A stretch of 64,000 bases of DNA from Sinorhizobium fredii USDA 257 (GTDB lineage Bacteria; Pseudomonadota; Alphaproteobacteria; Rhizobiales; Rhizobiaceae). Below are positions 17,374 to 34,302 of the stretch, piece by piece. Position numbers and translations under genes: made by a program. Every line of letters starts with the position of its first letter. The stretch's first letter is position 1. The notes below the pieces were generated by a model. It did not search any database, was not told the origin of the DNA, and saw only the letters and a list, made by a program, of their open reading frames with translations. Where the stretch lies: contig NC_018000.1 in the NCBI RefSeq assembly GCF_000265205.3, positions 2,852,001-2,916,000 of the forward strand. Reading direction: 5' to 3'.

Positions 17374-17681
17374 CGTTCTGGTCTCTCGGTCGTTGATAGA
17401 TGCATGAACGGCGAGGCGTTTGCCGCGCCCCACCTGAAGCCGACAAAGATGCCGGAACGAAGTGTCGGTTGCCAGTGGCCGGTGGAGAATCTCGGCCACT
17501 CCCGCGCGCTTGTCGAGCTTGGCGAACCGGCGACTAAGATCAGTCCATCGACGTATAAACCGAGCCGCTTGACAGCGCCGGACAATGAGCGGAAAACACC
17601 TGGTATGGGGTTGCGATCACCCCACGAGGCGACAGCCGAAGCATCGCGTCCATTCAACCGCTCACACGGAGGACGCGTCAT

Positions 17682-18504
17682 ATGTCGTCACGTCTTGAAA
17701 TCTCCCCCGAGAAGCTCGTCCGCCTTATTGGCACCCCGAAATGCCCCGCGCTCATCGATGTCCGCATGGATGAGGATTTTGACGAGGATCCGCGCTTGCT
17801 ACCCGGTTCGGTCCGGCGCGACTATCGCAACGTGCAGGAATGGGCCGCGGAGCTCGATTCAGACTCCGCAGTCGTGATCTGCCATCGCGGCAAGAAGCTC
17901 AGCTGCGGCGTTGCTGCCTGGCTTCGCAACTATGGCATTGCCGCCGACGTTCTCGAAGGCGGCTTCGAGGCCTGGGCCGAGGGCGGCTATGCGGCCGTGC
18001 CAGCTTCTGCAGTTCCGGAGCGGGACGCCAGCGGCCGCACCGTCTGGGTGACAAGGGCGCGGCCGAAGATCGACCGCATCGCCTGCCCCTTGGCTGATTC
18101 GCCGCTTTGTCGATCCACAGGCCGTCTTCCTGTACGTGTCGCCACCCGAGGTCGAGACGGTTGCCGAGCGCTTCGCCGCGACCCCCTTCGACATTGATGC
18201 GCCGATCCGCTGGAGCCACCGGGGCGAGCTTTGCACCTTCGACGTCATGGTCGAAGAGTTCGGCCTGGCGACCGAACCGCTGCTACGGCTCGCGACCATC
18301 GTGCGCGGGGCGGATACGTCCCGCCTCGATCTTGCGCCACAAGCGCCCGGCCTGCTTGCGGCATCTCTCGGCCTGTCGCGCATGTATGCCGACGACCTCG
18401 AGCAATTGGAGGCCGGGATGCTGCTCTACGACGCCTTTTACCGCTGGTGCCGGGATGCTACCGACGAAACGCATAACTGGCCGTCGCCGAAGAAGGATTC
18501 GTGA
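17682..18504 (+). pseudogene. chrB: ChrB-type chromate resistance regulator with rhodanese domain, frameshifted
   Basis: The gene begins at an ATG preceded by GGAGG. Residues about 1-112 form a rhodanese-like domain (LIDVRMDEDF, then VICHRGKKLSCGVAAWLRNY with a Cys at the active-site loop position). The ChrB C-terminal domain starts at GRTVWVTRARPKIDRIACP. One extra T in the run CCCCTT near 18092 shifts the frame. Without it the sequence continues as WLIRRFVDPQAVFLYV into the second frame, which ends normally at 18504. Translation as written stops at 18197 after nonsense. ChrB proteins regulate or assist ChrA, and chrA follows directly. The lesion could be a real mutation or a sequence error. 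Confidence 0.8.
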
Positions 18505-19920
18505 ATGACCGAGACTGCAAACAGGGCCGCGCCGGCTACGGCGCGGCAAGAATACGCTCACGGCATTCCCTTCGGTGAAGCCGTCCGGGTGTGGGCGAGG
18601 ATCGCGGCCCTGAGCTTCGGCGGTCCGGCCGGACAGATCGCGGTGATGCACCGCATCCTCGTCGACGAGAAGCGCTGGATCGGCGAGCACCGTTTTCTGC
18701 ATGCCTTGAACTACTGCATGTTGCTGCCCGGACCCGAGGCGCAGCAGCTTGCCGTCTATATCGGCTGGCTGCTGCACCGCACCGCCGGCGGCCTCGTCGC
18801 CGGGACGCTGTTCGTGCTGCCGGGCTTCCTCGCCATCCTGGGCTTAAGCTACATCTACGCCGCCTTTGGCAATGTCACCGTTGTTGAGGGGCTGTTCTTC
18901 GGCCTGAAGGCCGCGGTGCTCGCCGTCGTCATCCATGCCGTGTTCCGCATCGGTAGCAGGGCGCTCAAGAACCGGCTGATGCTCGGCATCGCCGCAGCCG
19001 CTTTCATCGCCATCTTCTTCTTCCGCGTCCCATTCCCGCTGATTATTCTGGCGGCGGGCATCATCGGCTACATCGGCGGCCGCTCCGGTTCGCCGCTCTT
19101 CCGGATCGGCGGCGGTCACAAGGCGGGGACTGGCCCGGTGCTCAAGGACGAGGATTCGCTGCTCGGCGAGGAAACCCCGGCGCATGCCCGTCCGAACCTT
19201 TCCTGGTCGCTTCGGGTTTCGGCGGTGTTCTTCGCGATCTGGCTCGTCCCACTGGCGCTGCTGACCGCCTTTCTTGGCGTGGACAATGTCTTTACCCAGA
19301 TCGGGCTGTTCTTCAGCCAGATGGCCGTCGTCACCTTCGGCGGAGCCTACGCCGTGCTCGCCTATGTCGCCCAGGAGGCGGTTCAGCATTACGGCTGGCT
19401 GAAACCCGGCGAGATGCTCGACGGCCTCGGCATGGCCGAGACGACACCGGGCCCTCTGATCATGGTCGTCCAGTTCGTCGGATTCATGGGAGCCTACCGT
19501 GATCCGGGATCGCTGAACCCGATGACGGCGGCGACGCTCGCGGCGATCCTGACGACCTGGGTGACCTTCGTGCCGTGCTTCCTCTGGATTTTCCTCGGAG
19601 CGCCCTTCATCGAGCGCCTTCGCAACAACGTAGCGCTGACGGGCGCGATGTCTGCGATCACCGCCGCCGTCGTCGGCGTGATCCTCAACCTTGCTGTCTG
19701 GTTCGGCCTGCACACACTGTTTTCGGAGGTGGTGACGTGGAAGCTCGGATGGTTCGCCCTCGACGTTCCCAATCCATCCTCACTGGTATTGCCATCACTC
19801 CTGCTGACAGCGGCGGCCGCGGTCGCAATCTTCCGCTATCAGGTTTCGATCATCGCGACGCTGCTCGCCTGCGCCATCGCCGGGCTTGTTTGGACAGTCG
19901 GAGCAAATGCCTTGATTTAG
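18505..19920 (+). CDS. chrA: chromate transporter ChrA (two-domain CHR family)
   Basis: A 471-residue integral membrane protein with two CHR halves. The first (about 25-190) has SFGGPAGQIAVM and LLPGPEAQQLAVYIGWL, and the second (about 245-460) has TFGGAYAVLAYVAQEAV and ETTPGPLIMVVQFVGF. These are the signature GGP/PGP motifs of chromate-efflux permeases, which expel chromate using the membrane potential. The ATG immediately follows the chrB stop codon, so the two form one transcript and are probably translationally coupled. If the chrB frameshift is genuine, chrA expression could be altered. Length and motifs indicate an intact transporter. Confidence 0.9.
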   Translation: MTETANRAAPATARQEYAHGIPFGEAVRVWARIAALSFGGPAGQIAVMHRILVDEKRWIGEHRFLHALNYCMLLPGPEAQQLAVYIGWLLHRTAGGLVAGTLFVLPGFLAILGLSYIYAAFGNVTVVEGLFFGLKAAVLAVVIHAVFRIGSRALKNRLMLGIAAAAFIAIFFFRVPFPLIILAAGIIGYIGGRSGSPLFRIGGGHKAGTGPVLKDEDSLLGEETPAHARPNLSWSLRVSAVFFAIWLVPLALLTAFLGVDNVFTQIGLFFSQMAVVTFGGAYAVLAYVAQEAVQHYGWLKPGEMLDGLGMAETTPGPLIMVVQFVGFMGAYRDPGSLNPMTAATLAAILTTWVTFVPCFLWIFLGAPFIERLRNNVALTGAMSAITAAVVGVILNLAVWFGLHTLFSEVVTWKLGWFALDVPNPSSLVLPSLLLTAAAAVAIFRYQVSIIATLLACAIAGLVWTVGANALI

Positions 19921-20276: not shown

Positions 20277-20864
20277 TCAGGCGAAATAGGCCAACCCGAT
20301 ACCGGCGCCCATGATCGCCGCGCCGGCGATGCGAAGCGCCGCCGTGGCGACCGCGCCGTATCGGGCAAGCTTAAGGCAAGCGGCGATTCCGGCCACGTGC
20401 AGGGTCGCCGTTCCCCCGATGAAACCGAGGATGTAGCCGACCGGGGCTCCCGCCGGCCCCTCCGCTCCATGAGCGAAACCGTGGAAGCAGCCGAAGGCGG
20501 CTGCGCCCGTGACCGCGAGGGCGAGCGGCACGTTTGCGTTCGCGATCAGCGTCGCGCCCAAGAGAACGACGGAGGCGAGGATCGCCGTTTCGATGAGCGG
20601 CATTGTCATGCCGGCCATGGCAAACGCAGCACCCGTCACCATGGCCGCGATGAAAGCGAGCGGCAGCCGCCACAGCGCCGGTCCGCCGAGCCGCGCGGCG
20701 ATCAGTCCGACGGCGGCCATAGCCAGCGGGTGGTCGACGCCGGAAAAGGGGTGATAGAGGCCGCTCGCCATGCTGTGGACATGGTCGCCGCCGGTATGGG
20801 CCAGGGCCTGAGCGGGCAGGGTGGCGAGAAGGGCGACGAGCGCGGTCAGAATCCTGAAGTTCAT
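20277..20864 (-). CDS. HupE/UreJ family nickel permease
   Basis: A 195-residue membrane protein with a cleavable signal (MNFRILTALVALLATLPAQA). The HupE/UreJ motif follows directly after cleavage: HTGGDHVHSMASGLYHPFSG with VDHPLAMAAVG next to it, where His and Asp residues bind nickel. Six to seven helices complete it, including GCFHGFAHGAEGP. Family members import nickel or cobalt for urease or hydrogenase. Here the gene is the downstream partner of a ureohydrolase of the nickel-dependent guanidine hydrolase type, so it probably supplies nickel to that enzyme. It lies 25 bases after the His-rich gene, in the same operon. The protein looks full length. Confidence 0.85.
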   Translation of the reverse strand: MNFRILTALVALLATLPAQALAHTGGDHVHSMASGLYHPFSGVDHPLAMAAVGLIAARLGGPALWRLPLAFIAAMVTGAAFAMAGMTMPLIETAILASVVLLGATLIANANVPLALAVTGAAAFGCFHGFAHGAEGPAGAPVGYILGFIGGTATLHVAGIAACLKLARYGAVATAALRIAGAAIMGAGIGLAYFA

Positions 20865-20889
20865 GACGTTCCCTTTCTGAAGGAGGAAT

Positions 20890-21429
20890 TCATTCGGTCG
20901 GTTCGATGTCGAAGTGCGAGGCGTCGGTCCGGTCCTCGAGCGTGCGCGCCTCGGCGAAGGAAAGCCGGACGACCGCTTTGCCGTCGTGATAGAGGAATCC
21001 CAGGTCCTGGCGCCGCGAGGTCATGCGTGCGGGCAGCACGTCGTAGCGCACGCCGTTGCCACCGAGGAGCGGCACGACCGCACCGATATCGGTGCGATCC
21101 GCGGTCTCGACACGAAGCAGATGCAGGGCTTTCCCGCAAGCGTCGACGCCGACGAAGGGAATGCCCGCAAGTCTGAGAAAACTCGTCGGATCGCTCGCGC
21201 GGGCGAAGTTCTCGATGAAAGCCGCCTCGACGAGATCGAGATCACGCTGGTGCGGCGGCGATTGGTCCTTGCTTTCGGGGCGATGCGGTACCTGCCATTG
21301 TACGGTGTCACGCTGCCGGTTATGGCCGGGACCCCCATGCTGGTGGCCGTGCTGGTGGTGGTCGTGACCTGGACCGTGATCACGGTCGTGTGAATGCGCG
21401 CCGTGATGGTAATGGTGTCCGCTGTGCAT
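20890..21429 (-). CDS. His-rich protein of the guanidine operon, putative nickel-handling protein
   Basis: A 179-residue protein whose first 36 residues contain 15 histidines (MHSGHHYHHGAHSHDRDHG and onward), followed by a globular region of about 120 residues with no recognised fold (RLAGIPFVGVDACGKALHLL, then VRLSFAEARTLEDRT). His-rich extensions of this sort store or transfer nickel in proteins such as HypB, SlyD and UreE. Placement between the guanidine hydrolase and a nickel permease supports a nickel storage or delivery role, but this is inference. The start has GGAGG before the ATG, and the gene begins 11 bases after the hydrolase stop. Confidence 0.65.
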   Translation of the reverse strand: MHSGHHYHHGAHSHDRDHGPGHDHHQHGHQHGGPGHNRQRDTVQWQVPHRPESKDQSPPHQRDLDLVEAAFIENFARASDPTSFLRLAGIPFVGVDACGKALHLLRVETADRTDIGAVVPLLGGNGVRYDVLPARMTSRRQDLGFLYHDGKAVVRLSFAEARTLEDRTDASHFDIEPTE

Positions 21430-21439
21430 GGTCGCCTCC

Positions 21440-22645
21440 TCAGAAACTCACCGGCTTGTCGATCAGGTGCTTGTGGGAGCCGAGCTTGCCATGCGCTACG
21501 AGCGAGCCAAGCGCCTCCACCACCACCCGTACGCCGAAAAGCGCCGTGATGTCGGAGGTGTCGTACGGCGGGCTGACCTCCACGACCTCAAGGCCGCAGA
21601 GCCCTTCTGCCGCGACCAGGCCGAGAATCTTCAGCGCTTCGCGCGGCAGGAAACCGCCCGGTTCCGGCCAGCCGGTGCCGGGCACGAAGCCGCAATCGAT
21701 ACTGTCGACGTCGAAAGAGATGTAGACGGCGTCCGCGTCCTTCCAGGCGAGTTCGAGCGCAATCTCCGCGGTCTTCTCCGGACCGAGCTTTTCAATGTCG
21801 TCGATCGTCAGCACGTTGGTGCCGCGCTCGCGCGCCACCTTCACGCCGTCGCGCGGCACCTGCCAGCCGCCGATACCGAGCTGGACGAGATTTTTCGGCG
21901 AGACGTTCGGCAGATTGGTCGCCCAGAACCAGGGCGTCGTGTGCATGCGTTCGTCGAGATCCTTTTCCTGGATATCGATGTGGCGATCGAAATGGATGAT
22001 GCCGATGCGTTTCGAGGTGCATTCGGCAATGCCGCGCACGCAGGGAAAGCCGATCGAGTGGTCGCCGCCGAGCATGATCGGCAGCGCGCCGGAGGAAAAG
22101 ACATGGGCGACGCCGCGGGTGATCTGGTCGAAGCTCTTTTCCAGATTGGCCGGAATGGTGAAGACGTCGCCGGCATCGCAGAGCGTCATCTGCTCGCGCA
22201 GATCCACACCCATCTCGTAATTATAGGGTGTATACAGCGCGGAGATCCGACGGATGCCCTGCGGTCCGAAGCGCGTGCCCGGACGATAGGTCGTGCCGCT
22301 GTCGAAAGGGATGCCGAGCACGGCAGCATCGTATTTGCCGACATCGCGCACGTTTTCGACGTAGGGCGCCTTCAGGAACGTGTTGATGCCGGCGAAATGC
22401 GGCAGCTCGCCCCGCGCGAAGGTCGGGATCGACTTGTCCGTCAGACTCTCCGATCCCGGCAGCCCCATGTCGAGTGCCCATTTCTTTTCCCGTCCCCAGC
22501 CCTTGCCGGCAAGCTTTGCTTCCGCCTCGAGCGCCTTCCAGCCCTGGCTGTCGAGCATGTTGAAATCCGGGTGGTGGCGGCGCTCGCGACCTGACGTCGC
22601 GAGTGGGCCGGCGCGACGGGACTGGCGGCTTGGGGGTTCACGCAT
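21440..22645 (-). CDS. gdmH: guanidine hydrolase (guanidinase) of the nickel-dependent ureohydrolase type
   Basis: A 401-residue ureohydrolase, longer than agmatinases (about 320), with the N-terminal extension typical of GdmH. All metal-ligand motifs are present: GGDHS near residue 203, FDRHID near 230 and SFDVDSID near 318. Blocks such as DERMHTTPWFWATNLPNV and VPGTGWPEPGGFLPREALK match my memory of cyanobacterial GdmH (formerly called agmatinase) closely. The enzyme hydrolyses guanidine to urea and ammonia in the cytosol using nickel. The operon is preceded by a guanidine-I riboswitch and followed by a His-rich protein and a nickel permease, which fits this assignment better than agmatinase. 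The start overlaps the upstream ATPase gene by eight bases. Confidence 0.82.
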   Translation of the reverse strand: MREPPSRQSRRAGPLATSGRERRHHPDFNMLDSQGWKALEAEAKLAGKGWGREKKWALDMGLPGSESLTDKSIPTFARGELPHFAGINTFLKAPYVENVRDVGKYDAAVLGIPFDSGTTYRPGTRFGPQGIRRISALYTPYNYEMGVDLREQMTLCDAGDVFTIPANLEKSFDQITRGVAHVFSSGALPIMLGGDHSIGFPCVRGIAECTSKRIGIIHFDRHIDIQEKDLDERMHTTPWFWATNLPNVSPKNLVQLGIGGWQVPRDGVKVARERGTNVLTIDDIEKLGPEKTAEIALELAWKDADAVYISFDVDSIDCGFVPGTGWPEPGGFLPREALKILGLVAAEGLCGLEVVEVSPPYDTSDITALFGVRVVVEALGSLVAHGKLGSHKHLIDKPVSF

Positions 22646-23438
22646 CGGGCATGCTCCTTTTCGTTTCGTGGAATGTCGTTTTGATCGGCCGCGAAAAGCC
22701 GAGAATCGGGACGGGGCCGTCGCGGCTCAAATCGAGGTCGTAGATGATGCGGGCGCCGTAGCGCTCCGGCGCTTGCGGATCGATGCGTGGCTTGTCGAAG
22801 GCGAGCAGCCGCGTGCCGAGGCCGAAGGCTTCCTTGAGATCGTGGGTGACCATGATCACGGTCACGCCGCGCTCGCGCCATAGCGGCTTGATCAGCGCGT
22901 GCATCTGCGCCCGCGTGCCGGGGTCAAGCGCGCCGAAGGGCTCGTCGAGCAGCAGCACTTTCGGTTCCCTGGCGAGCGCCTGGGCGATCGCCAGCCGCTG
23001 CTGCTGACCGCCGGAAAGGGCGCTCGGAAACTTCCGCGCGTGCCCGCTAAGGCCGACCGCTTCGAGAAGCGCCTCCGCCTTCTCGCTCGCCGCCCTTCTC
23101 CTGGTTCCGAACAGCTTGGCCATGAACGGGCTTGCGGCAAATTCGAAGGCGATCAGGACGTTCTCAAGCACGGTGAGATGCGGAAACACCGAGTAGCGCT
23201 GGAAGACCACGCCGCGGTCCGGCCCCGGCTCGGCCGGCAGCGCTACTCCATCGAGCGTTATGATGCCGCGCGTCGGCCGCTCCTGTCCGAGAATCATTCG
23301 GAGGAAGGTGGATTTGCCACAGCCCGAGGGGCCGACGACCGAGACGAATGCACCGGAGGCGATATCGAGCGAGATGCTTTCGAGCACGATCTGGTCGCCA
23401 TATTCCATCCAGATATTATGGACCCGGATATCGCTCAT
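22638..23438 (-). CDS. ABC transporter ATP-binding protein, guanidine operon (SsuB/TauB type)
   Basis: A 266-residue ATPase of the nitrate/sulfonate/taurine class. It has Walker A GPSGCGKST (about 38-46), the Q-loop VVFQRYSVFPHLT, the signature ALSGGQQQRLAIAQAL, Walker B VLLLDEPFGALDP and the switch MVTHDLKEAF, all intact. It energises the adjacent permease. The ATG at 23438 overlaps the permease stop as ATGA, so the two are coupled. Riboswitch control upstream points to guanidine as the substrate, although the protein family alone would suggest sulfonates or nitrate. An upstream start at 23489 would lie inside the permease gene. Confidence 0.85.
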   Translation of the reverse strand: MSDIRVHNIWMEYGDQIVLESISLDIASGAFVSVVGPSGCGKSTFLRMILGQERPTRGIITLDGVALPAEPGPDRGVVFQRYSVFPHLTVLENVLIAFEFAASPFMAKLFGTRRRAASEKAEALLEAVGLSGHARKFPSALSGGQQQRLAIAQALAREPKVLLLDEPFGALDPGTRAQMHALIKPLWRERGVTVIMVTHDLKEAFGLGTRLLAFDKPRIDPQAPERYGARIIYDLDLSRDGPVPILGFSRPIKTTFHETKRSMPDA

Positions 23439-24259
23439 AAGCGGGCCTCCTGGACATAGGCCCAGGGGAAGACACGCCGGGCGAGCCATGCCAGCAGCGA
23501 GTCGAGGAGGTAGGCGATGAGCGTGATCCAGGCGACGTAAGGAAGGATCACGTCCATGGCGAGATAGCGCCGGACGAGGAAAATGCGGTAGCCGAGGCCG
23601 CTCTCGGCGGCGATCGCTTCGGCCGAGATGAGGAAGAGGAAGGCCGGGCCGAGCGAGAGCCTCAAGGCTTCGATAAGCCGCGGCATCGCCTGCGGCAATG
23701 CCACGCGCAACGTCAGTTGCCAGGTCGAGGCGCCGAGCGTCTGCGCCTTGACGATCTGTTCGCGGGGGATGGCGCCAACGGTCATGGCGAGATCGCGGAC
23801 GAGAAAGGGCGCGATGCCGATCACGATCAGCACGATCTTGGAGAGTTCACCGAGGCCGAAGACGATGAAGAGCACCGGCAGGATCGCCATCGGCGGGATC
23901 ATCGAAATGACGGCGACGAGCGGTGACAGACCAGCACTCGCCACTGGCAATAGACCGAGCGTCAACCCAAGCACCAGGCCGACGGCGGCGGCCACACCGA
24001 GGCCGATGAACAGTCGCTGGAGGCTCGCCGCGGTATCCGACCAAAGGGTCAAGTCTCCCGACCGCCGGTCGGGCTCGGTCGCCAGCCGGTCCATGCTTGT
24101 CGCCATTTCCGCGATCGGCGGCAGCAGCTTGTCGCCCGGATTTGCGGTCCGCCGTTCCGCCGAAACGACGACATAGAGGTAGGCGATCAGCAGAAACGGC
24201 AGGAGGGCAAGCAGGATCCGCGTTCCCGATCCCGGGACGATATTGATGGCACGTCGCAT
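23435..24259 (-). CDS. ABC transporter permease, guanidine operon (SsuC/TauC type)
   Basis: A 274-residue inner-membrane permease with about six helices. The cytoplasmic EAA-type loop that contacts the ATPase is visible as VKAQTLGASTWQLTLRVALP (about 174-193), with the next helix pair after RLIEALRLSLGPAF. It belongs to the BPD_transp_1 family of nitrate/sulfonate importers. It lies 76 bases after the binding-protein gene and overlaps the ATPase gene by four bases, giving the usual order of binding protein, permease, ATPase. A guanidinium importer is inferred from the riboswitch. Confidence 0.85.
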   Translation of the reverse strand: MRRAINIVPGSGTRILLALLPFLLIAYLYVVVSAERRTANPGDKLLPPIAEMATSMDRLATEPDRRSGDLTLWSDTAASLQRLFIGLGVAAAVGLVLGLTLGLLPVASAGLSPLVAVISMIPPMAILPVLFIVFGLGELSKIVLIVIGIAPFLVRDLAMTVGAIPREQIVKAQTLGASTWQLTLRVALPQAMPRLIEALRLSLGPAFLFLISAEAIAAESGLGYRIFLVRRYLAMDVILPYVAWITLIAYLLDSLLAWLARRVFPWAYVQEARL

Positions 24260-24335
24260 GGCCGGTTCCTATCCTGGAGAGCACGTCGGACTGCGATCGG
24301 CAGGGGGGCGCCGGCCACCCTGCCTGACCGGAGCA

Positions 24336-25418
24336 TCAGAGCGAGCCTTCGGCGGCGAGCTTCATGTAGCTGGCGTCGAAGCGCAGCTTCACATTGTCGG
24401 CCGAACCCAGCACCTGGCCGCCCGGGAAGGCGATGCCGACGATGTCCTTGTCCGGGGCGCCGTCGCCGAGAAGGCCATGATCGAAGGAGAAGGTGCGCAC
24501 CAGGTCCATGGTCTTGACGAGATCCTCGCTCTCGGCGAATGCGACCGCCTCCTGAGGTGTCGCGAACAGCTTGGTCGCCGCAAGCTGGGCCTCGAAGCCG
24601 GCAAGGTCCGTGCCGGACATCGCTCCCATCGCGGCGCGTGCGGCGTTACCCTTCTCGCCCGGGTCCGTCAGGACCGACATCGTCTCGTACCAGATGCCGG
24701 CGAGTGCCTTGCCGAAGTCGGGATTGTCCTTGAGCACCTCGGTGTTGACCATCAACGTGTCGATGATCTCGCCTGGAATTTGCGTGGAATCGAACAGCGC
24801 GGCGGAACCGGGTTCGGCCTTGACCTCGGCGAGCAGCGGGTTCCAGGTGACCACCGTCGAGGTTTCAGGCGACTTGAAGGCGGCGACCATGTCGGCATCG
24901 GAGGTGTTGACGATCGTCACGTCCTTTTCGGAAAGCCCCGCCGTTTCGAGAGCGCGCGCAAGCAGGTAGTGCGAGACCGACAGTTCGACGAGATTGATGC
25001 TCTCACCCTTGAGCTCGGCGGGCGTATTCGCGGTCCTGGAGACGATGCCGTCATTGCCGTTGGAAAAGTCGCCGATGATCAGGATCGTCGTGTCGACGCC
25101 GCCGGCGGCTGGAATGGTCAGGCCATCCATGTTCGTCGCTGTCACGCCGTCGAAGCCGCCGGCAGTGTACTGGTTGATCGACTCGACGTAGTCGTTGATC
25201 TGCTTGACGTTGATGGTGATGCCGTATTTGTCGGCCCATTTCTTCACGATACCGGCATCCGCCGCATAGGGCCATGGCATCCAACCGACATAGATCGTCC
25301 AGGCGATATTGAATTCCTTCTTCGGCTCCGCATGCGCCCCGCCGGCTAGAAGCGAGAGCGAAAGGCCGAGGGCGGCCGAGAGGGTACGAAAACCGAATCT
25401 GCCATTTCCGAAACGCAT
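24336..25418 (-). CDS. ABC transporter substrate-binding protein, guanidine operon (SsuA/THI5-like)
   Basis: A 360-residue periplasmic protein. The signal peptide runs from MRFGNGRFGFRTLSAALGLS to about AGGAHA (residue 30), and the mature protein starts EPKKEFNIAWTIYVGWMPWP. The fold is the NMT1/THI5-like type II binding protein, as in nitrate, taurine and sulfonate uptake; recognisable blocks include GGFDGVTATNMDGLTIPAAG and TVVTWNPLLAEV. Trp- and Tyr-rich start segments such as WTIYVGWMPW fit a cation-pi pocket for guanidinium, but this is speculation. The start at 25418 has AGGGG upstream; the frame stays open into the riboswitch, which is not coding. It is the first gene of the guanidine operon. 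Confidence 0.83.
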   Translation of the reverse strand: MRFGNGRFGFRTLSAALGLSLSLLAGGAHAEPKKEFNIAWTIYVGWMPWPYAADAGIVKKWADKYGITINVKQINDYVESINQYTAGGFDGVTATNMDGLTIPAAGGVDTTILIIGDFSNGNDGIVSRTANTPAELKGESINLVELSVSHYLLARALETAGLSEKDVTIVNTSDADMVAAFKSPETSTVVTWNPLLAEVKAEPGSAALFDSTQIPGEIIDTLMVNTEVLKDNPDFGKALAGIWYETMSVLTDPGEKGNAARAAMGAMSGTDLAGFEAQLAATKLFATPQEAVAFAESEDLVKTMDLVRTFSFDHGLLGDGAPDKDIVGIAFPGGQVLGSADNVKLRFDASYMKLAAEGSL

Positions 25419-25512
25419 CGTTCTGTTCCCCTGTTCAACTTGGGGCTCACGCTGCGCTCTTTTCTCGGAAATCACAGGCGGGATTCCCAAAGCAACGGCA
25501 CCGCTGCATGAG

Positions 25513-25608
25513 CCTCCCGGGCTTTTATCCCGCCGTGGACCCGGTGGATGTCTCCCCACCGGAGGTTTCTCTCGGTCCAGTCATGCCTTATCGGCATCGG
25601 AACCCTAG
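25513..25608 (-). promoter_or_regulatory. guanidine-I (ykkC class) riboswitch
   Basis: The minus-strand leader contains the consensus landmarks in order: CTAGGGTTCCG at the 5' end (25608-25598), a short variable hairpin (ATGCCGATAAGGCAT), ACTGGACCGAGAGAAAC, a GGTGGGGAGACATCCACC helix, a CCACGGCGG segment and the terminal GGGATAAAAGCCCGGGAGG (25531-25513). This matches the ykkC subtype 1 aptamer, which binds guanidinium and turns on downstream genes. It ends about 95 bases before the first operon gene. An expression platform in the 25419-25512 interval was not resolved. Confidence 0.9.
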
Positions 25609-25618
25609 AAACATTTTC

Positions 25619-25646
25619 AGTATAATTCCATGTCGTCCAAAGTAAA
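25619..25646 (-). promoter_or_regulatory. candidate promoter of the guanidine operon
   Basis: On the minus strand TTTACT (25646-25641) and TATACT (25624-25619) are separated by 16 bases. A transcript starting about seven bases later would begin at about 25612, just ahead of the riboswitch 5' end at 25608. The geometry fits a housekeeping-type promoter, but the -35 box is weak. Confidence 0.45.
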
Positions 25647-25867: not shown

Positions 25868-27673
25868 TCAGGCCGCCAAGCTGGCGATGTAGGCACGCCA
25901 TCCGCCATGGCGGCTGATGTCTGCAGCTCCGGCAAGCCCGGCCGGCTCGACTATAAAGCCCTTGCAGGCCGTTCCGTCGGCAAGCTGGACGGTGCCAATC
26001 GCAAGTGGTGATGGAACGGCTGCGACAAAGAGCCCGAACGCCTCCGCTCGTAACGTCCAGACCTCAACCTCAATCAGGGCACCTTCACTCTCCTGACAAC
26101 GCACGAGACCGGGCTTCGCGGGCTCGGTGCCCGTAAGAGCATAAAGCCTGTAGCATTTGGCCGTCAGCGCCCGCCGGGAAAATCGGGCGCCCAGGTCTCG
26201 CAACTGACCGTTCAAGGGCATGCCGGAAAGATGCGCGCCGACCACGACGAGTTCAATCAGCTCGTCCTCGTCGGTTTCCGCAGAAGGATGGTTCGCTGGC
26301 TGCGGCCACCCGGTGGCGCCGAGCGGCAGGGCGCTTAGCCGATGCAGTTCGCCAGCGAGCAATGCGGTCAGGTGATCCTTGCCGGCAGGCGCGAGCAAGG
26401 TGACGCTCGCGGGCCGGCCGTCGGATCTGCGGCCTGTCGGTACGGTCATGCCGCACATGTCCAGAAGGTTGACGAAATTGGTGTAGGTGCCGAGCCGCGC
26501 GTTTTCGCGGATCGGTTCCGATTCGAGATCGGCGCGCGTGTAGTGTGTAGGCGCGGTTGGGACGCATATCATGTCGACTGTGGCGACGAGCGGAGCGACC
26601 TTTCGTTTCAGCGCCTGCAATGCATAGTGACCCTCGAAGGCATCCGCCGCCGATAATGCCTTGGCGCCGCCATAGATCGTTCGCGTCACCGGATGAAAGC
26701 TCGCCTCCTGCGCATCGAAGAAGTCCTTGACCGCCGCATAGCGCTCGGCGACCCAGGCGCCTTCGTAGAGAAGCGCGGCCGTGGCATAGAAATCGGCAAA
26801 GGGCAGTTCGACGATCTGGTGCCCCAACGAGCGCAGCATCTGGAGCGCCTCATCATAGGCACTCTCCATGAGTACGTCGCCGTAGAAGCGCCGATCCGCT
26901 CCTGCCGGAACGCCGACTTTGAGGACCGGTGGCAAAGAGAGGCCGCCCCTCGACGCAATATCCCGGGAGTAGGGATCGGTCTCATCGGGTCGTGCGGAGA
27001 CTTTGAAGACCCGATAGGCGTCGGCGACGGTCAGGGCGAAGATCGAGACGCAGTCGAGCGTTCGGCAGGCCGGCACGACGCCCGTGGTCGACAGGGCCCC
27101 GATACTCGGCTTGAGGCCGACGATATTGTTGAGCCCGGCCGGTATGCGGCCGGATCCCGCCGTGTCGGTGCCGAGCGCGAAGCTGACGATACCGTGGGCC
27201 GTCGCGACCGCCGAACCGGAGCTCGACCCGCCAGGCACAAGTGCTTGATCAATCGCATTGCGCGGCACCGGATAGGGCGTGCGCACCCCAACCAGACCGG
27301 TTGCGAACTGATCGAGATTGGTCTTGCCGACGACGAGGGCGCCGGCCTCGCGCAACAGTCGCACGACTGTGGCGTCCCCTTCGGCCAGGTAGGCATAGTC
27401 CGGGCAGGCGGCCGTCGTCGGCATGCGGGCGACATCGATATTGTCCTTGACGGCGAAGGGAATGCCCCACAGCGGTTTGGCGACAGGGTCGAAGGCGCCC
27501 AGTGCGGCGGCCGCGTCAAGGAGATCGCTGCTGTCGGCGAGAGTGAGAAAGATGCCGGGGTCGTCGACGGCCGCGATGCGCTCGAAAATCGTCCCGATCA
27601 TCTCAGTTACGGTCCAACCGGAAAGATAGGCCGCGTGAATAGATGCAATGTCGAAAGCCTGTCCGCCTGTCAT
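25868..27673 (-). CDS. atzF: allophanate hydrolase
   Basis: A 601-residue amidase-signature enzyme that splits allophanate into ammonia and CO2. The catalytic Ser-cisSer-Lys triad is intact: Lys in IPFAVKDN (about 76), Ser in PGGSSSGSA (about 151) and the nucleophile Ser in TDTAGSGRIPAG (about 174). The C-terminal third (about 470-601) is the AtzF/DUR1-type domain with LVVVGAHLSGMPLNGQLRDL and GTVQLADGTACKGF, so the protein has the standard two-domain length. It is a free-standing hydrolase with no urea carboxylase partner here. In this operon it completes biuret breakdown. It overlaps the cupin gene by four bases and is the last gene of the transcript. Confidence 0.92.
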   Translation of the reverse strand: MTGGQAFDIASIHAAYLSGWTVTEMIGTIFERIAAVDDPGIFLTLADSSDLLDAAAALGAFDPVAKPLWGIPFAVKDNIDVARMPTTAACPDYAYLAEGDATVVRLLREAGALVVGKTNLDQFATGLVGVRTPYPVPRNAIDQALVPGGSSSGSAVATAHGIVSFALGTDTAGSGRIPAGLNNIVGLKPSIGALSTTGVVPACRTLDCVSIFALTVADAYRVFKVSARPDETDPYSRDIASRGGLSLPPVLKVGVPAGADRRFYGDVLMESAYDEALQMLRSLGHQIVELPFADFYATAALLYEGAWVAERYAAVKDFFDAQEASFHPVTRTIYGGAKALSAADAFEGHYALQALKRKVAPLVATVDMICVPTAPTHYTRADLESEPIRENARLGTYTNFVNLLDMCGMTVPTGRRSDGRPASVTLLAPAGKDHLTALLAGELHRLSALPLGATGWPQPANHPSAETDEDELIELVVVGAHLSGMPLNGQLRDLGARFSRRALTAKCYRLYALTGTEPAKPGLVRCQESEGALIEVEVWTLRAEAFGLFVAAVPSPLAIGTVQLADGTACKGFIVEPAGLAGAADISRHGGWRAYIASLAA

Positions 27674-28029
27674 GGCTCATTTCCTTCAAGCATCGTTACG
27701 GGCCGGTCCCACTGGATCAGCACGACACAGCCGGTGTCGCTCCAGACGGAATGTTCCTTGCCGCCGGCATTCACGATATAGGTCCCGGCTCCGTAGTCGC
27801 CGCTTTCGTCGGACTGCGTGCCGGTAAGCACCAGGATCGTCTCCAGGCCCTCGTGACGGTGACGCGGCACGGAAGCGCCGGCCTCGTAGTGGAGCAGGGC
27901 TACGGCCGGCTGGTCGCCGTCGAAGCGCTTGATCCAGTGGATCATCACGCCGTCGCGAAACGGCTCGAATTGGAGTTCGCGCCAGCTTCCCTGGGTCAGG
28001 CTCTCGCGTGTCGCTTCAGGCATGGGCAA
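27670..28029 (-). CDS. small cupin-domain protein
   Basis: A 119-residue single-domain cupin. The two cupin motifs appear as [17 protein letters not shown] (His-x-His and Glu, about 58-74) and the later [20 protein letters not shown] (His, about 91-110), giving a complete metal site. ChrR-type cupins of this size serve as sensors or small-molecule isomerases; the role here is unknown. It overlaps the upstream hydrolase by 14 bases and the allophanate hydrolase by four. It is therefore tightly bound into the biuret operon and may act on an intermediate or bind it. Confidence 0.75.
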
Positions 28030-28684
28030 TCTCCTTGATCACATCGGCAAGGTGCGCCGTCCACCCGACGATGGCGCCCTGGGCGCGGATCATCGCGAGC
28101 GTCGCGGCCTTGAACTCCGGGAAATAGCTTTCCGTCGCTTCCTCGACGAGCAGGCACTCGTAGCCGCGGTCGTTCGCCTCGCGCATGGTCGTCTGCACGC
28201 AGACTTCCGTCGTGACACCGGCGAAGATGAGCTGGGCGATACGCCGCTCCTTGAGGATGTCGTCGAGCGGCGTCGCATGGAACGCGCCCTTGCCGGGCTT
28301 TTCGATAACCGTCTCGCCCACCACCGGCGCGAGTTCCGGCAGGATCGCGGTGCCCGGTTCGCCAGCAATCAGGATGCGCCCCATCGGCCCCTCGTCGCCG
28401 ATCCTCAAGCGAGGATTGCCGCGCTCGCGCTTGGCGCGCGGCAGATCGGAAAGGTCGGGCCGGTGACATTCCATGGTATGGATCACCGGCAGGCCGGCGG
28501 CGCGAAAGCGCTCGATCAATCGCTTGACGTCCGGCACGATCTTCATCAGCCGCGAGACGTCATTGCCGAGGCTGGCGCCGAAGCCGCCTTCCTCCGTGAA
28601 GTCACGCTGCATGTCGATGACGATGAGTGCGACGGCGTCGCGCCGGAGCCTGAACGGAAAAGGTTCTGCCTTGATCTGCGCCAT
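28016..28684 (-). CDS. second isochorismatase-like cysteine hydrolase of the biuret operon
   Basis: A 222-residue hydrolase with the isochorismatase fold. The catalytic triad is visible: Asp in [10 protein letters not shown] (about 24), Lys in [10 protein letters not shown] (about 129-132) and Cys in [12 protein letters not shown] (162). It resembles the biuret hydrolase encoded nearby in layout and in motifs (HRPDLSDLP against HRPDLADLP) but diverges elsewhere, including the lid region after the Asp. Known relatives act on biuret, triuret, ureidoacrylate and N-carbamoyl compounds. A neighbouring substrate of this pathway, such as triuret or a carboxybiuret, is plausible but not shown. It overlaps the ABC ATPase gene by one base. 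Confidence 0.75.
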
Positions 28685-30231
28685 CAGTGGTGTCCCGCCA
28701 TGTGTGCGCCGATGACGGCGACGTCGGCCACGCGGATCGGCGTCTCGTAGACAAGCTTGCCATCCGACATGACGATGATCCGATCCGACATCTCCATGAG
28801 CTCGTCGAGATCCTCCGACATTAGGAGCACGGCGGCGCCGGCATTGCGCGCCTTCATGATACGGGCGCGGATTTCCGCGACCGCGGAGAAGTCGAGGCCG
28901 AAACAGGGGTTGGAGACGATCAGGAGATCGACGTCGCCCGACAGTTCGCGGGCGAGCACGGCGCGCTGCACATTCCCGCCCGAAAGCGCTGCGATCGGCG
29001 AGGCGGGGGAGGCGGTCTTCACCTTGAAATCGGAAATCAGCGCCGTCGCCCGCTTCCTCATGCCGCGCCCGTCGAGCCAGATCGCGTCGCTGCCGTCCTT
29101 GCGCATGTCGAAGGTCCGGAAGGCGAGATTTTCCGTCACCGTCATTTTCGGCGCGCAGGCATTGTTGAGCGGCTCTTCCGGGATGAAGCGAATGTTGTTC
29201 GCCCGGGCTTCGGGTCGCGTGGCGCTGTAGGGCTTGCCCTTGACCATGACGGCGCCGACTTCCGCCCGGCGCTGGCCGGCAAGCACCTCGGAGAGTTCCT
29301 TCTGGCCGTTACCGGAAATGCCGGCAATGCCGACGATCTCCCCGGCGCGAACGACAAGGTCCTCGATCTCAATGCTCTTCAGGCCGGTTCGGTCCGGAGC
29401 TCTGACCTGCTTGACGGCGAGCACGGGAGCGGCGTGCGGGGGAACGGGCAGGCGTGTGTCGAGCTCGGTAAGCTTGGCGTCGCCAATCATCATCGCTGCC
29501 ATGTCCGCGGTGGAGAGTTCGGAAACCTTGCCGGTGCCCGAAAGCCTGCCGCGCCGGAGCACGGAAACCGCATCGGCGAACTTCGTCACCTCGTGGAACT
29601 TGTGCGAAATCATCAGGACCGTCAGTTCGCCGCGCTCAGTCATGCCGCGCACGAGGCCGAGCATGTCGTCGGCCTCGGCCGGGGTGAGCACGGAGGTCGG
29701 CTCGTCGAGCACCAGGAAGCGGCGTCCGAGATAGAGCTGCTTGATGATCTCGAGCTTCTGCTTCTCGCCGGCTGCGAGTTCGCTCACTGGGCGGTCGAGC
29801 GCGATGTCGAAGGGCATCGTCTCCATGAAGGCGGAGAGCTTCTTCCGCTCCTTCGACCAGTTGATGATCGCGGGCACGCGCACGCGGCTGATGACCAGGT
29901 TTTCAGCGCCGGTCAGCGACGGCACCAGCGTAAAGTGCTGATAGACCATCCCGAGACCGTGAGCCGCGGCATCGCGCGGCGAAGCGATCGCCACTTCTCG
30001 GCCGTCGACCTGCAATTGCCCCAAGGTCGGGTGATAGAAGCCCATGATGCACTTGACGAGCGTCGACTTGCCGGCCCCGTTTTCGCCGAGAAGCGCATGG
30101 AAGGAGCCGGCCGGCACCTTGATAGACACATGATCGAGCGCGGTGAAGGAGCCGAAGCGCATCGTCATCCCAACGGTCTCGATGCCGACGGCGGGCATAG
30201 CCTTTGGGGCGTGGATTTCGCCGATGATCAT
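28684..30231 (-). CDS. BMP-type ABC transporter ATPase (two nucleotide-binding domains)
   Basis: A 515-residue tandem ATPase of the RbsA/YufO class. The first domain has Walker [12 protein letters not shown] (about 49-59), signature [11 protein letters not shown] and Walker [13 protein letters not shown]. The second has a degenerate Walker A-like [13 protein letters not shown] (about 295), signature [17 protein letters not shown] and [11 protein letters not shown]. One strong and one weak site is typical of this family. It energises the two permeases upstream. The ATG at 30231 overlaps the biuret hydrolase stop as ATGA; the frame is open further upstream, but that region codes for the hydrolase in another frame. 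Confidence 0.87.
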
Positions 30232-30944
30232 GGCAGTTGACCGACGAGTGTTGCGGAATTGGACACGGAGCCGAAGACGCCGCCCTGCATCTTCACCATC
30301 CTGATCGCGGCAAGATGGTTGCCGTAGTCGGTCGCCCCGCAGCAATCCTCGAGCAGCAGGCATTCGAAGCCGCGGTCGTTCGCCTCCCGCATCGTCGTGT
30401 GCACGCAGACATCGGTGGTGATGCCCGTCAGGATGATGTTCGCGATGCGCTTCTGATTGAGGATCAGTTCGAGGTCGGTGGCGCAGAAGGAGCCCTTGCC
30501 CGGCTTGTCGATGATCGTTTCGCCCTCGATCGGCTTCAGCTCGTCGATGATCTCCCATCCGGGTTCGCCGCGGACCAGGATGCGCCCGCACGGGCCGGCA
30601 TCGCCGATCCCTGCCTTGATCCGCTGCGAACGCCAGCGCTTGTTGGCAGGAAGGTCGGCCAGATCCGGTCGATGGCCCTCGCGCGTGTGGATGATGTGGT
30701 AGCCCTTGGCCCGCGTCGCCGCGAGCACCGTCTTGATCGGCTTGATCGGCGCGCGTACCAGCGAGAGGTCGTAGCCCATGTGGTCGACATAGCCGCCGGG
30801 ACCGCAGAAGTCCGTCTGCATGTCGATGACGATCAGCGCCGTGTTCTCCGGCCGGAGATCGCCGTTATAGGGCCACGGATAGGGATTGGCATCGATATGG
30901 CTGAGCTTCTGGCATGTGACCGGAAGGGAGGCGAGGCGGCTCAT
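30228..30944 (-). CDS. biuH: biuret amidohydrolase
   Basis: A 238-residue cysteine hydrolase with the isochorismatase fold, which converts biuret to allophanate and ammonia. The catalytic residues are in place: Asp41 in IVIDMQTDF, Lys147/150 in [10 protein letters not shown] and Cys180 in [12 protein letters not shown]. Long stretches such as [20 protein letters not shown] and [20 protein letters not shown] agree, as far as I recall, with the characterised Rhizobium leguminosarum BiuH. The N terminus [20 protein letters not shown] is also typical. Its product is the substrate of the allophanate hydrolase in the same operon. An AGGAG lies nine bases before the ATG. It sits between the permease and ATPase genes of the importer, which ties transport to degradation. 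Confidence 0.85.
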
Positions 30945-30956
30945 GAGGGGTCGCTC

Positions 30957-31883
30957 CTATTTGGTGATCGACAATGCGCCGGGCGCACCGGCGAGCGAGC
31001 GGGTGGGAGAGGATGTGGCGATCATGATCACGAGGGTGAGCATGTAGGGCGCTGCATAGAAGAGGTAGTACCCCTTTGTGACGCCGACCGATTGCAAGGC
31101 CGGCCCAAGCGCGCCCGCGCCGCCGAAGAGTAGCGCGGCGAGGAAGCATCCGATCGGGTTCCAGCGGGCGAAGATGACGAGCGCCACGGCCATGAGGCCC
31201 TGTCCGGACGAGATTCCCTCGTTCCATGAGCCCGGATAGTAGAGCGAAAGATAGGCACCGCCGATCGCGGCCAGCGCTCCGCCGGTGGCCGTTGCGAGCA
31301 GGCGCACCGTGTCAGGGTTCAGGCCCATGGCGCGGGCGGCGTCCGAGCTGTCACCGACGACGCGCAGGATGAGGCCGGTGCGGGTATTGCGGAAGGCCCA
31401 CCAGAGGAAGAGGGCAAGGGCCGCACCGATCAGGAATAGCGCGTTGATGTTGAGCGCGGCCTGGATCTGCGGCAGGTCCGACCAGCCGCCGAAAGGGATG
31501 GCAGGCAGCTTCGGCGCGGCGGGCTGGATGAAGGGTTTTCCGAGGAAGAAGGCGAGGCCGAGACCGAGCTGCATCATGGCGATACCGATGGCGATGTCGT
31601 TCACCTTCGGAAACTTGCAGATAAAGCCGTGGGTGAGGCCGAAACAGGCGCCCGCCGCCATCGCCGCTAGCACGCCGAGCCAGGGCGAGAGCGTAATGAC
31701 TGCGACGGCATAGGCGATCATTGCGCCGAAGACCAGCGTGCCTTCGAGACCGAGATTGATCCGACCGGAGCGTTCCGTGATCGCCTCACCGAGGCTCACG
31801 AAAATGAAGGGCGTGGAGACGCGGATCGCGCCGGCGAAGACCGCAAGGGGAACTCCCCAAATGCCGATACCGGTCCCGTCCAT
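30957..31883 (-). CDS. BMP-type ABC transporter permease (second)
   Basis: A 308-residue membrane protein of the BPD_transp_2 family with about eight to nine helices. Characteristic segments are VSLGEAITERSGRINLGLEG (about 27-46) and FARWNPIGCFLAALLFGGAG near 230. It pairs with the permease just upstream to form the channel of a purine/nucleoside-type (BMP-dependent) importer. The second of two adjacent ATGs (31883) is used because AAGGAG then lies six bases upstream; the first (31886) is too close. The gene overlaps the stop of the upstream permease. Confidence 0.85.
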   Translation of the reverse strand: MDGTGIGIWGVPLAVFAGAIRVSTPFIFVSLGEAITERSGRINLGLEGTLVFGAMIAYAVAVITLSPWLGVLAAMAAGACFGLTHGFICKFPKVNDIAIGIAMMQLGLGLAFFLGKPFIQPAAPKLPAIPFGGWSDLPQIQAALNINALFLIGAALALFLWWAFRNTRTGLILRVVGDSSDAARAMGLNPDTVRLLATATGGALAAIGGAYLSLYYPGSWNEGISSGQGLMAVALVIFARWNPIGCFLAALLFGGAGALGPALQSVGVTKGYYLFYAAPYMLTLVIMIATSSPTRSLAGAPGALSITK

Positions 31884-33013
31884 CATGCGCTCCTTTTCCA
31901 GAGGTCCGGATTGAAGATCCTGAAGCGACCGTAGAAGGTCTCGCAAAACAGGATCACGATGAAAAGCGTGCCCTGAAGGACGAGGACGGTCGCGTCCGGC
32001 AGGCCCATGCGGCGCTGGATCAGGCCGCCGGAGGCATCAATGCCGCCGAGCAGGATGGCGACGGGGATGATTGCCAGCGGATTGTGGCGCGCGAGGAATG
32101 CGACAAGGATGCCGGTGTAGCCGTAACCTGCGGCAAGCGAGCCGTTGGCGCTGCCCTGCACGGCGGCGACTTCGATCGTGCCGGCAAGACCGGCGAAGCA
32201 ACCGGCGAGCGCGGTGAAGCCGACGATCAGCTTGCCGACGGCAAGTCCCTGTATCTGCGCGGCGCGGACATTGCCGCCGGCAATGCGCGCGGCGAAGCCG
32301 AAACTCGTCGCCTCGATCAGGACCCAGGAAGCAATGCAGGCGACTATGCCGACGGCGAGGCCCCAATGCACGTCCATGCCGGGGATGCTGCCGAGCATGT
32401 AGTCCGGCGGCAGCGGCGCGGTCGAGGGCTTGTTGAGGCTGGCAGGATCGCGCAGCGGCCCCTCGATCAGATGGTTCATCAAGGCAATGGCGATGTAGGC
32501 GAGCAGCAGCGAGGCGATCGTCTCGTTGACACCGCGATTGTGCCTGAGCAGGCCGGTAAGCCCGATCCAGATTGCGCCGACGAGCATGCCGGCAAGCGCC
32601 ATGAAGAGCCAGACGAGCGGAGGGGGTGCGCCGCCGACGAGGGGCAGGGCGATCGCCGCTCCGGCAACGCCGCCGAGCACGACAGCGCCCTCCGCGCCGA
32701 TAACCACGAGGCCGAGCCTGGCTGGAAGAGCGACGCAGAGCGCGGTCAGGAGGAGCGGTGCGGCTCGGCTGAGTGAATTCTGGATCGAAAACCAGGTGCC
32801 GAAGCCGCCGGCGTACATGAGCTGAAAGAGCGCGATCGGCGACTTGCCGATCAGTGCGATGAACATCGAGAACAGCGCGAGTCCGATGAGGATGGCAAAG
32901 AGCGTAATCGTCAGCGGTTCCGCGCGCCGGGCCAGCCATTCGAGGAAGGGCCGCAAATTACCGGCCCGCCCGTCGAGTGTTGGCAGAGTGTGGGAGTTGG
33001 CCTCCAGGGTCAT
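31883..33013 (-). CDS. BMP-type ABC transporter permease (first)
   Basis: A 376-residue inner-membrane protein of the BPD_transp_2 family. A cytosolic N-terminal tail of about 30 residues precedes about ten helices. Family blocks include LGLVVIGAEGAVVLGGVAGA (about 100-119), RGVNETIASLLLAYIAIALM near 158 and GYGYTGILVAFLARHNPLAI near 298. It is the partner of the permease at 30957-31883. It lies 15 bases after the binding-protein gene. Substrate is not visible in the sequence; the operon context suggests biuret or a related ureide. Confidence 0.86.
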   Translation of the reverse strand: MTLEANSHTLPTLDGRAGNLRPFLEWLARRAEPLTITLFAILIGLALFSMFIALIGKSPIALFQLMYAGGFGTWFSIQNSLSRAAPLLLTALCVALPARLGLVVIGAEGAVVLGGVAGAAIALPLVGGAPPPLVWLFMALAGMLVGAIWIGLTGLLRHNRGVNETIASLLLAYIAIALMNHLIEGPLRDPASLNKPSTAPLPPDYMLGSIPGMDVHWGLAVGIVACIASWVLIEATSFGFAARIAGGNVRAAQIQGLAVGKLIVGFTALAGCFAGLAGTIEVAAVQGSANGSLAAGYGYTGILVAFLARHNPLAIIPVAILLGGIDASGGLIQRRMGLPDATVLVLQGTLFIVILFCETFYGRFRIFNPDLWKRSA

Positions 33014-33028
33014 GATGCCGACGCTCCC

Positions 33029-34174: not shown

Positions 34175-34302
34175 CGGAAATGCTCCTGAGTGGCGGAGGT
34201 CGGGTTCGAGATCGACGCAATAGGAAGTGCATGCAATGTGCGTGCCAAGATGTAAGTATCGGATATTATTGAGGTACACTATTCGTGAAGATGGCCATTG
34301 AC

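What the first reader, a model, noticed from the sequence alone, without database searches (positions are those of the whole stretch)
20277..25608. Guanidine-I riboswitch controls an importer plus a nickel guanidine hydrolase
The leader at 25608-25513 (minus) has the ykkC-class landmarks CTAGGGTTCCG, ACTGGACCGAGAGAAAC and GGGATAAAAGCCCGGGAGG. The genes behind it are a nitrate/sulfonate-type ABC importer and a 401-residue ureohydrolase with GdmH-like blocks, then nickel-related genes. Annotation pipelines would call these sulfonate transporter and agmatinase. Together they make a guanidine uptake and hydrolysis operon.
Basis: partly seen in the sequence, partly recalled or inferred. Interest (0 to 1): 0.88.

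Follow-up and report, generated by a model that had tools for sequence, protein, structure and literature searches.

The report
Guanidine-eating operon, unnamed histidine-rich partner
A Sinorhizobium operon, switched by a guanidine-sensing RNA, probably imports guanidine and splits it with a nickel enzyme; the operon type is known, but next to the enzyme gene sits an undescribed histidine-rich protein that accompanies it in related bacteria and may load its nickel.

Summary
Rfam's Guanidine-I model hits 25619-25512(-) at 85 bits. The ureohydrolase matches two solved guanidine hydrolases at 546 and 521 bits (next best 174) and has all ten residues listed for guanidinases. The importer's binding protein passes the cut-off of NCBI's 'putative urea ABC' family. 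This operon type is in print, so as stated the finding is a new member of a known kind.

What looks new is the gene directly behind gdmH (20890-21429), called HisR here: a His-rich tail plus a conserved core, no Pfam, NCBIfam or PDB match. In overlapping samples of 397, 398 and 115 genomes (order, phylum, class), 44 genomes have a GdmH with the guanidinase Trp, and all 44 have HisR directly behind it. Three GdmH-like enzymes without the Trp lack it; a fourth was cut off. None of 80 GdmH loci from Nitrospira, Actinobacteria and others shows it within 7 kb. HypA, used by cyanobacterial operons, is missing in 32 of 42 genomes and not near gdmH in the other ten. Best reading: HisR is a dedicated nickel-handling partner of alphaproteobacterial GdmH. 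Its nickel role is inferred; nothing was tested at the bench.

The parts
25512..25619 (-). Guanidine-I (ykkC) riboswitch aptamer
   Evidence: RF00442, 85.2 bits, E 8.5e-14
25419..25511 (-). leader between aptamer and first gene; presumed expression platform
   Evidence: MFE and centroid folds pair the 5' strand of P3 with a downstream segment; 8-nt complement GGCGGGAT/ATCCCGCC 28 nt downstream, not above shuffles on its own (26 of 60 reach it)
24336..25418 (-). ABC importer, substrate-binding protein; guanidine as substrate is inferred
   Evidence: TIGR03427 540.4 bits, cut-off 333.9 (run on the longer ORF to 25559); ATG with GGGGA upstream
23435..24259 (-). ABC importer permease
   Evidence: PF00528
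22638..23489 (-). ABC importer ATPase (ORF; likely start at 23438, by eye)
   Evidence: PF00005
21440..22645 (-). gdmH, Ni-dependent guanidine hydrolase by sequence (401 aa)
   Evidence: 546 bits to 7esr/7oi1, 521 bits to 9fek; T119 H196 D220 H222 D224 H235 D312 D314 W326 E356
20890..21429 (-). HisR: His-rich N-terminal tail plus conserved core, undescribed family, proposed nickel partner of GdmH
   Evidence: no significant Pfam/NCBIfam/PDB match
20277..20864 (-). HupE/UreJ membrane protein, putative nickel importer
   Evidence: PF04955 156.5 bits; behind HisR in 13 of 38 fetched HisR regions

Best explanation
An inducible guanidine-nitrogen operon of Sinorhizobium/Ensifer. Guanidine binds the Guanidine-I aptamer and turns on an ABC importer (binding protein, permease, ATPase), a Ni-dependent guanidine hydrolase (GdmH: guanidine to urea plus ammonia), HisR and a HupE/UreJ permease. 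Urea is finished by the urease encoded elsewhere in the genome. HupE would bring in nickel; HisR would hold nickel on its histidine tail and hand it to, or insert it into, GdmH, taking the place of the HypA/HypB-type chaperones of the cyanobacterial operon. Shown by computation: the RNA family, the enzyme family and signature residues, the gene order, the HisR-GdmH association and the lack of HypA. Inferred: induction, guanidine transport, enzyme activity, nickel binding and delivery by HisR.
For: Riboswitch. Enzyme. Importer. Urease: one strong urease-alpha hit in the own genome. HisR-gdmH link: in the order sample all 40 genomes with HisR have gdmH directly 5' of it, same strand, gap -5 to 480 nt; in the phylum sample the same 7 of 398 genomes have both; in the class sample all 3 genomes with HisR have both; two of two Rhodobacterales plasmids with gdmH have it. 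HisR is absent in three genomes whose GdmH-like protein has Ser or Thr for the guanidinase Trp: G140, G368, G816. HypA in 10 of 42 GdmH-bearing genomes, none near gdmH; HypB over cut-off in 9 of 42, none near gdmH. gdmH-HisR stay together where no importer gene lies between riboswitch and gdmH (G077, G326) and where no riboswitch or urease was found (G031). HisR-GdmH distance correlation 0.92 against 0.53 for HisR with the binding protein, 32 loci.
Against: HisR has no detectable homologue of known function, so the nickel role rests on histidine content, neighbours and missing alternatives. His-rich tails also occur in zinc and cobalt proteins (recalled; weak composition hits include both). 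One relative (G695) has a short tail with few histidines. The comammox regions lack nickel chaperones (passage) and the two Rubrobacter plasmids show neither HisR nor an annotated chaperone beside gdmH, so GdmH may not need one everywhere. Most GdmH genomes have urease and a UreG-like GTPase below the HypB cut-off; in four genomes of one family (G142, G252, G170, G076) such a gene lies within about 5 kb of gdmH and could serve GdmH. HupE follows HisR in only 13 of 38 fetched HisR regions. Guanidine-versus-urea specificity of the importer is not shown.
Confidence: 0.8

Rival explanations
1. The enzyme is an agmatinase, guanidinobutyrase or other Mn-dependent ureohydrolase, as pipelines name it.
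For: PF00491 family; NCBIfam agmatinase models are the best matches among named families, though below cut-off; relatives are annotated 'agmatinase family protein'.
Against: 546/521 bits to guanidine hydrolases against 174 to guanidinobutyrase. Thr and Trp signature present. Guanidine riboswitch on the operon.
Confidence: 0.04
2. The enzyme acts on a substituted guanidine (dimethylguanidine, metformin) like the DmgH/MefH pairs, DmgH being known from Hyphomicrobiales.
For: MefH/DmgH loci also carry nickel genes and HupE (PMC11399263, passages).
Against: MefH/DmgH are active only as complexes of two subunits encoded in tandem; here there is one gene. PDB scores of metformin hydrolase subunits are 130-138 bits. 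Trp signature present.
Confidence: 0.04
3. HisR is not a GdmH chaperone but nickel storage or a urease helper that happens to be co-expressed.
For: 41 of 42 GdmH genomes have some urease-alpha hit (weak only in G140 and G368, partial in G214); His-rich storage proteins are known (recalled).
Against: In the order sample HisR occurs in 40 of 397 genomes and all 40 have GdmH. G031 has gdmH and HisR but no urease-alpha match and no strong UreG/HypB-like hit. HisR divergence follows GdmH.
Confidence: 0.2
4. HisR is a small structural or regulatory subunit of GdmH rather than a metal-delivery protein.
For: Conserved core beside the tail; strict adjacency and parallel divergence.
Against: The N. inopinata enzyme was purified as a homohexamer with activity (PMC11410670 passage), though it comes from a branch without HisR. 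A His-rich start is kept in all 38 translated relatives of alignment A2 although its sequence is not.
Confidence: 0.12

Closest known systems
Synechocystis sp. PCC 6803 gdmH (sll1077) operon
   Same: Guanidine-I riboswitch, SsuA/TM_PBP2/NrtD-type ABC importer, Ni-dependent GdmH (passages of PMC12186494 and PMC8390497); PDB 7esr/7oi1 is the best match (organism of these entries).
   Different: There two nickel-loading accessory genes (hypA/hypB-type) are in the operon; here neither is near gdmH and a gene of another family stands behind it; HupE added.
Nitrospira inopinata guanidinase operon
   Same: Guanidine-I riboswitch and same enzyme family with the same T/W signature.
   Different: APC permease instead of an ABC importer; no nickel chaperone found by its authors; no HisR hit in the Nitrospira loci scanned.
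Metformin / dimethylguanidine hydrolase loci (MefH/DmgH)
   Same: Ni-dependent ureohydrolases with nickel genes and a HupE homologue downstream (passages).
   Different: Two-subunit enzymes, HypA and HypB upstream, distant sequence (130-138 bits for metformin hydrolase subunits).
Guanidine carboxylase operons
   Same: Guanidine riboswitch and ABC importer (passages).
   Different: ATP-dependent carboxylase route instead of a ureohydrolase.

Membership tests
Guanidine-I riboswitch (RF00442) | covariance-model score above gathering | tested here: met
   85.2 against 63 bits
Guanidine-I riboswitch (RF00442) | guanidine binding and gene induction | not testable with these tools
   needs in-line probing or a reporter
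GdmH guanidine hydrolase | same clade as characterised guanidinases | tested here: met
   (a 47-row group holds it with 7esr and 9fek, support 95/91; long-branch warnings apply; only four outgroup paralogues)
GdmH guanidine hydrolase | Thr (T105) and Trp (W313, N. inopinata numbering) specificity residues | tested here: met
   T119 and W326 (criterion from PMC11410670 passages; chain numbering shifted by 2)
GdmH guanidine hydrolase | six metal ligands H/D/H/D/D/D | tested here: met
   H196 D220 H222 D224 D312 D314
GdmH guanidine hydrolase | nickel content and guanidine turnover | not testable with these tools
   needs purified enzyme
TIGR03427 putative urea ABC substrate-binding protein | score above curated cut-off | tested here: met
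   540.4 against 333.9
HypA/HypB-type nickel chaperones of guanidinase | HypA (PF01155) or HypB (TIGR00073) gene near gdmH | tested here: not met
   own genome: no HypA, HypB-like hits below cut-off and far away; HisR has no significant match to either
HupE/UreJ | PF04955 above cut-off | tested here: met
   156.5 against 23 bits
Agmatinase (TIGR01230 / NF002564) | score above curated cut-off | tested here: not met
   159.4 against 174.3; 206.8 against 302
Metformin/dimethylguanidine hydrolase | tandem alpha and beta subunit genes | tested here: not met
   a single ureohydrolase gene in the operon

The most novel reading that the evidence does not exclude
HisR founds a new family of dedicated nickel metallochaperones: the third arrangement for loading GdmH (HypA/HypB in cyanobacteria, none found in comammox, HisR in Alphaproteobacteria), with gdmH-hisR the minimal inherited unit and co-evolving partners.
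Probability: 0.55. Interest if true: 0.65.

Novelty: new variant of a known kind. Interest (0 to 1): 0.5.

Why it matters
The comammox paper states that the nickel-loading mechanism of its guanidinase is unclear (passage). HisR is a concrete and easily tested candidate for nickel delivery in a bacterial group most of whose sampled GdmH genomes lack HypA. It also gives a sequence marker: among the Alphaproteobacteria sampled, an 'agmatinase family protein' followed by a His-rich 'hypothetical protein' marks a GdmH with the guanidinase signature, so annotations can be corrected.

Tried and rejected
Intrinsic terminator as expression platform: 5 of the 35 leaders examined have a run of four or more T within 130 nt of the aptamer, so termination at a U-run is unlikely as the common mechanism. 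A complement to the 3' strand of P3 is enriched 10-40 nt downstream (6 or more bp in 30 of 35, against 14 and 7 of 35 in the two control windows), consistent with an anti-aptamer helix. Against it: in the window's own leader this match is only CCCGGG/TTTGGG (6 bp), and the alternative pairing of the P3 5' strand is not above shuffles; a shuffle test over all leaders found only 3 of 35 clearly above chance. The step from helix to translation or Rho control is open.

Remote homology of HisR: the PDB profile search gave 0 matches at E up to 10. Pfam and NCBIfam gave only sporadic weak hits (best E 0.087 and 0.028); the NCBIfam ones include several His-rich metal proteins and are read as composition.

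Conserved-neighbour clustering in the 80 named GdmH loci was swamped by spurious ORFs in GC-rich DNA; only its HisR count was used. Those 80 are the best of 567 by likeness to the Nitrospira sequence (itself a capped list), so they are no random sample, and four of them have under 1 kb downstream of gdmH.

The upstream allophanate hydrolase/cupin/cysteine-hydrolase genes were considered as part of the guanidine route (guanylurea to guanidine). The hydrolase is closest to 6xix/6xj4 'cysteine hydrolase', then to a 'putative amidase' and a biuret hydrolase; no homologue of these three genes was found in the 40 fetched gdmH regions (about 7 kb upstream and 3 kb downstream where the contig allows); and they lie upstream of the riboswitch. 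They were left out.

Dropped or incomplete rows: HisR alignment A2 holds the window and 38 of the 39 other HisR genomes of the order sample (G358 left out, its gene is split between two frames; starts chosen by hand). The distance test used 32 of these 39. G072's GdmH does not cover the Thr; G063's GdmH is split, one piece used; G804's GdmH ends before the Trp. G214 was missed and checked. GdmH was sought at E up to 1e-100 or 1e-80, so fragments may be missed. The riboswitch search over 42 genomes used stricter filters that lose weak matches. Of the 11 plasmid records with gdmH two, Nonomuraea and Embleya, were not looked at further.

The key 2022 Nature paper on GdmH (Funck et al.) is not held; whether it or its supplement mentions the His-rich gene could not be seen. 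Supplementary files were not opened (the cap for them is zero). No mention was seen in the listings (20 of 444 listed; 20 of 24; 15 of 80), 68 and 69, which show titles and abstract starts only, nor in the passages read of eight papers.
Full report
Observation. The Rfam scan of the whole window gives Guanidine-I at 25619-25512 on the minus strand with 85.2 bits (E 8.5e-14), full model length. The quoted motifs are in the sequence. Behind it, all on the minus strand, lie a binding protein, a permease, an ATPase, a 401-residue arginase-family enzyme, a 179-residue protein with a histidine-rich start, and a HupE/UreJ protein. The closest named relatives of the 179-residue protein are from Ensifer and Sinorhizobium.

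The enzyme. Against the PDB its two best matches are 7esr/7oi1 (546 bits, Synechocystis) and 9fek (521 bits, N. inopinata), aligned over residues 33-389 and 33-392; the next is a guanidinobutyrase at 174 bits (organisms). The comammox paper (PMC11410670, passages) uses Thr105 and Trp313 of the N. inopinata enzyme to infer guanidinases and lists the metal ligands. On an alignment of 53 rows the window protein has all ten positions (T119, H196, D220, H222, D224, H235, D312, D314, W326, E356). Four paralogues in the same genome have Thr or Val for the Trp and fall outside the GdmH group, on very long branches. NCBI's agmatinase models match only below their cut-offs. By the sequence tests made here the enzyme is a guanidine hydrolase; activity was not tested.

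The importer and the rest of the pathway. The binding protein passes the cut-off of TIGR03427, named 'putative urea ABC transporter substrate-binding protein'; that this family goes with guanidine operons is recalled, and ABC importers are described in guanidine operons (passages). The genome has one strong urease-alpha hit elsewhere. In four sampled genomes (G235, G363, G326, G375) a urease-alpha hit lies within 12 kb of gdmH.

The gene behind gdmH. This is where the finding goes beyond what is known. The 179-aa protein, HisR here, has 309 relatives at E up to 0.01 in the large protein set (120 listed; those with a source name are 'hypothetical' or 'uncharacterized'), and 1930 with the wider profile (120 listed; candidates capped at 8000). 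It has no significant Pfam, NCBIfam or PDB match. In 397 genomes of the order, 40 have HisR and 42 a GdmH at E up to 1e-100. All 40 HisR genes lie directly 3' of gdmH on the same strand, gap -5 to 480 nt. The two GdmH-like proteins without HisR (G140, G368) have Ser for the Trp. In 398 genomes of the phylum the same seven genomes have both, four of them already counted. In 115 genomes of the class three have both, one of them new (G833), and two GdmH-like proteins lack HisR: G816 has Thr for Trp, G804 is cut off before the position. Together: 44 distinct genomes with a GdmH carrying the Trp (43 with the Thr too, not covered in G072), and 44 with HisR adjacent. In the plasmid collection 11 records have gdmH: in five S. 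fredii records HisR matches at adjacent coordinates, and in two Rhodobacterales records the 'hypothetical protein' behind 'agmatinase family protein' is HisR; two Rubrobacter records have none; two more were not looked at.

Outside Alphaproteobacteria. A scan of named genomes with a GdmH profile kept the best 80 of 567 loci (Nitrospira, Actinobacteria, Chloroflexi and a few others). All 80 have the full signature and none has a HisR-profile hit within 7 kb (four have under 1 kb downstream). So HisR appears to belong to one branch of GdmH.

Sequence of HisR. The 38 translated relatives keep a histidine-rich start (8 to 31 His in the first 60 residues, starts chosen by hand) with at most one cysteine; in G695 the tail is short with few histidines. 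The core falls by eye into two subfamilies; mean identity is 31% between them and 58% within (32 loci). The 13 members of the second subfamily that are in the GdmH tree fall into one supported GdmH clade of 17 rows; its other four rows are two genomes (G606, G695) whose HisR looks like that subfamily too. Over 32 loci, pairwise distances of HisR and GdmH correlate at 0.92, HisR and binding protein at 0.53, GdmH and binding protein at 0.48. Shared ancestry contributes to all three, so this shows that HisR and GdmH are inherited together more tightly than either with the importer; it does not prove contact.

Unit of inheritance. In G077 and G326 the riboswitch sits about 100 nt before gdmH without the importer in between; G031 has gdmH-HisR with no riboswitch hit, no urease-alpha match and no strong UreG/HypB-like hit. 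The binding protein is found in 32 of 38 fetched HisR regions (three of the six misses are at contig ends), HupE behind HisR in 13 of 38. In 22 regions without HupE that were examined, no common next gene stands out by eye.

Nickel. Published cyanobacterial gdmH operons carry hypA/hypB-type genes (passages), and the metformin hydrolase loci carry hypA, hypB and hupE (passages). In the 42 GdmH genomes HypA occurs in 10 and HypB over cut-off in 9, in each case away from gdmH; the own genome has no HypA. Against an exclusive role of HisR, UreG-like genes below the HypB cut-off occur in most of these genomes and lie within about 5 kb of gdmH in four of one family. The simplest reading is that HisR does the nickel job here. 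That it binds nickel, and gives it to GdmH, is inference.

Riboswitch action. [quoted passage not shown] Of the 35 leaders on the same contig as gdmH, 5 have a T-run; a segment complementary to the 3' strand of P3 lies 10-40 nt downstream in 30 of 35 (14 and 7 of 35 in control windows), so ligand-stabilised P3 and a downstream helix probably exclude each other. For the window's own leader the free fold pairs the other P3 strand downstream, a match not above shuffles by itself.

Novelty. The HisR family and its tie to alphaproteobacterial GdmH were not seen in the listings or in the passages read, but the 2022 Nature paper could not be read. I rate the whole as a new variant of a known kind.

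Noticed in passing
window 17602-17682 (+): chrB-a RNA (RF03078, 76.9 bits, gathering 43.9) ahead of a rhodanese/ChrB-like ORF and a chromate-transporter-like ORF at 18505-19920; the two gene names are by eye, no family search was run on them.
   Followed up: no
window 25868-34279 (-): Next genes upstream, same strand: allophanate hydrolase (TIGR02713 824.5 bits), cupin, cysteine hydrolase closest to PDB 6xix/6xj4 and then to a putative amidase and a biuret hydrolase, a second isochorismatase-like ORF at 30228-30944, ABC genes and a binding-protein-like ORF at 33029-34279 (the last three by eye). Looks like a triuret/biuret nitrogen operon (triuret name recalled); no homologue of the first three in the 40 fetched gdmH regions.
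   Followed up: partly
L100 (G140), L101 (G368), L202 (G816): GdmH-like ureohydrolases with Thr kept but Ser or Thr for the guanidinase Trp, no HisR; a HupE match directly behind in G140 and G368. Substrate unknown; perhaps a substituted guanidine.
   Followed up: partly
L102 (G031): gdmH-HisR with no Guanidine-I hit, no urease-alpha match and no strong HypB/UreG-like hit in a genome listed as 100% complete: it would release urea or use it otherwise.
   Followed up: no
L065 (G358) 8281-8750: HisR split between two frames behind a GdmH that reads through in one frame; a disrupted gene or a sequencing error.
   Followed up: no
G000 contig C1: The window lies in a 6.48 Mb contig, while in five S. 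fredii records the operon is on replicons of 2.2-2.5 Mb: replicon fusion, relocation or an assembly join is possible.
   Followed up: no
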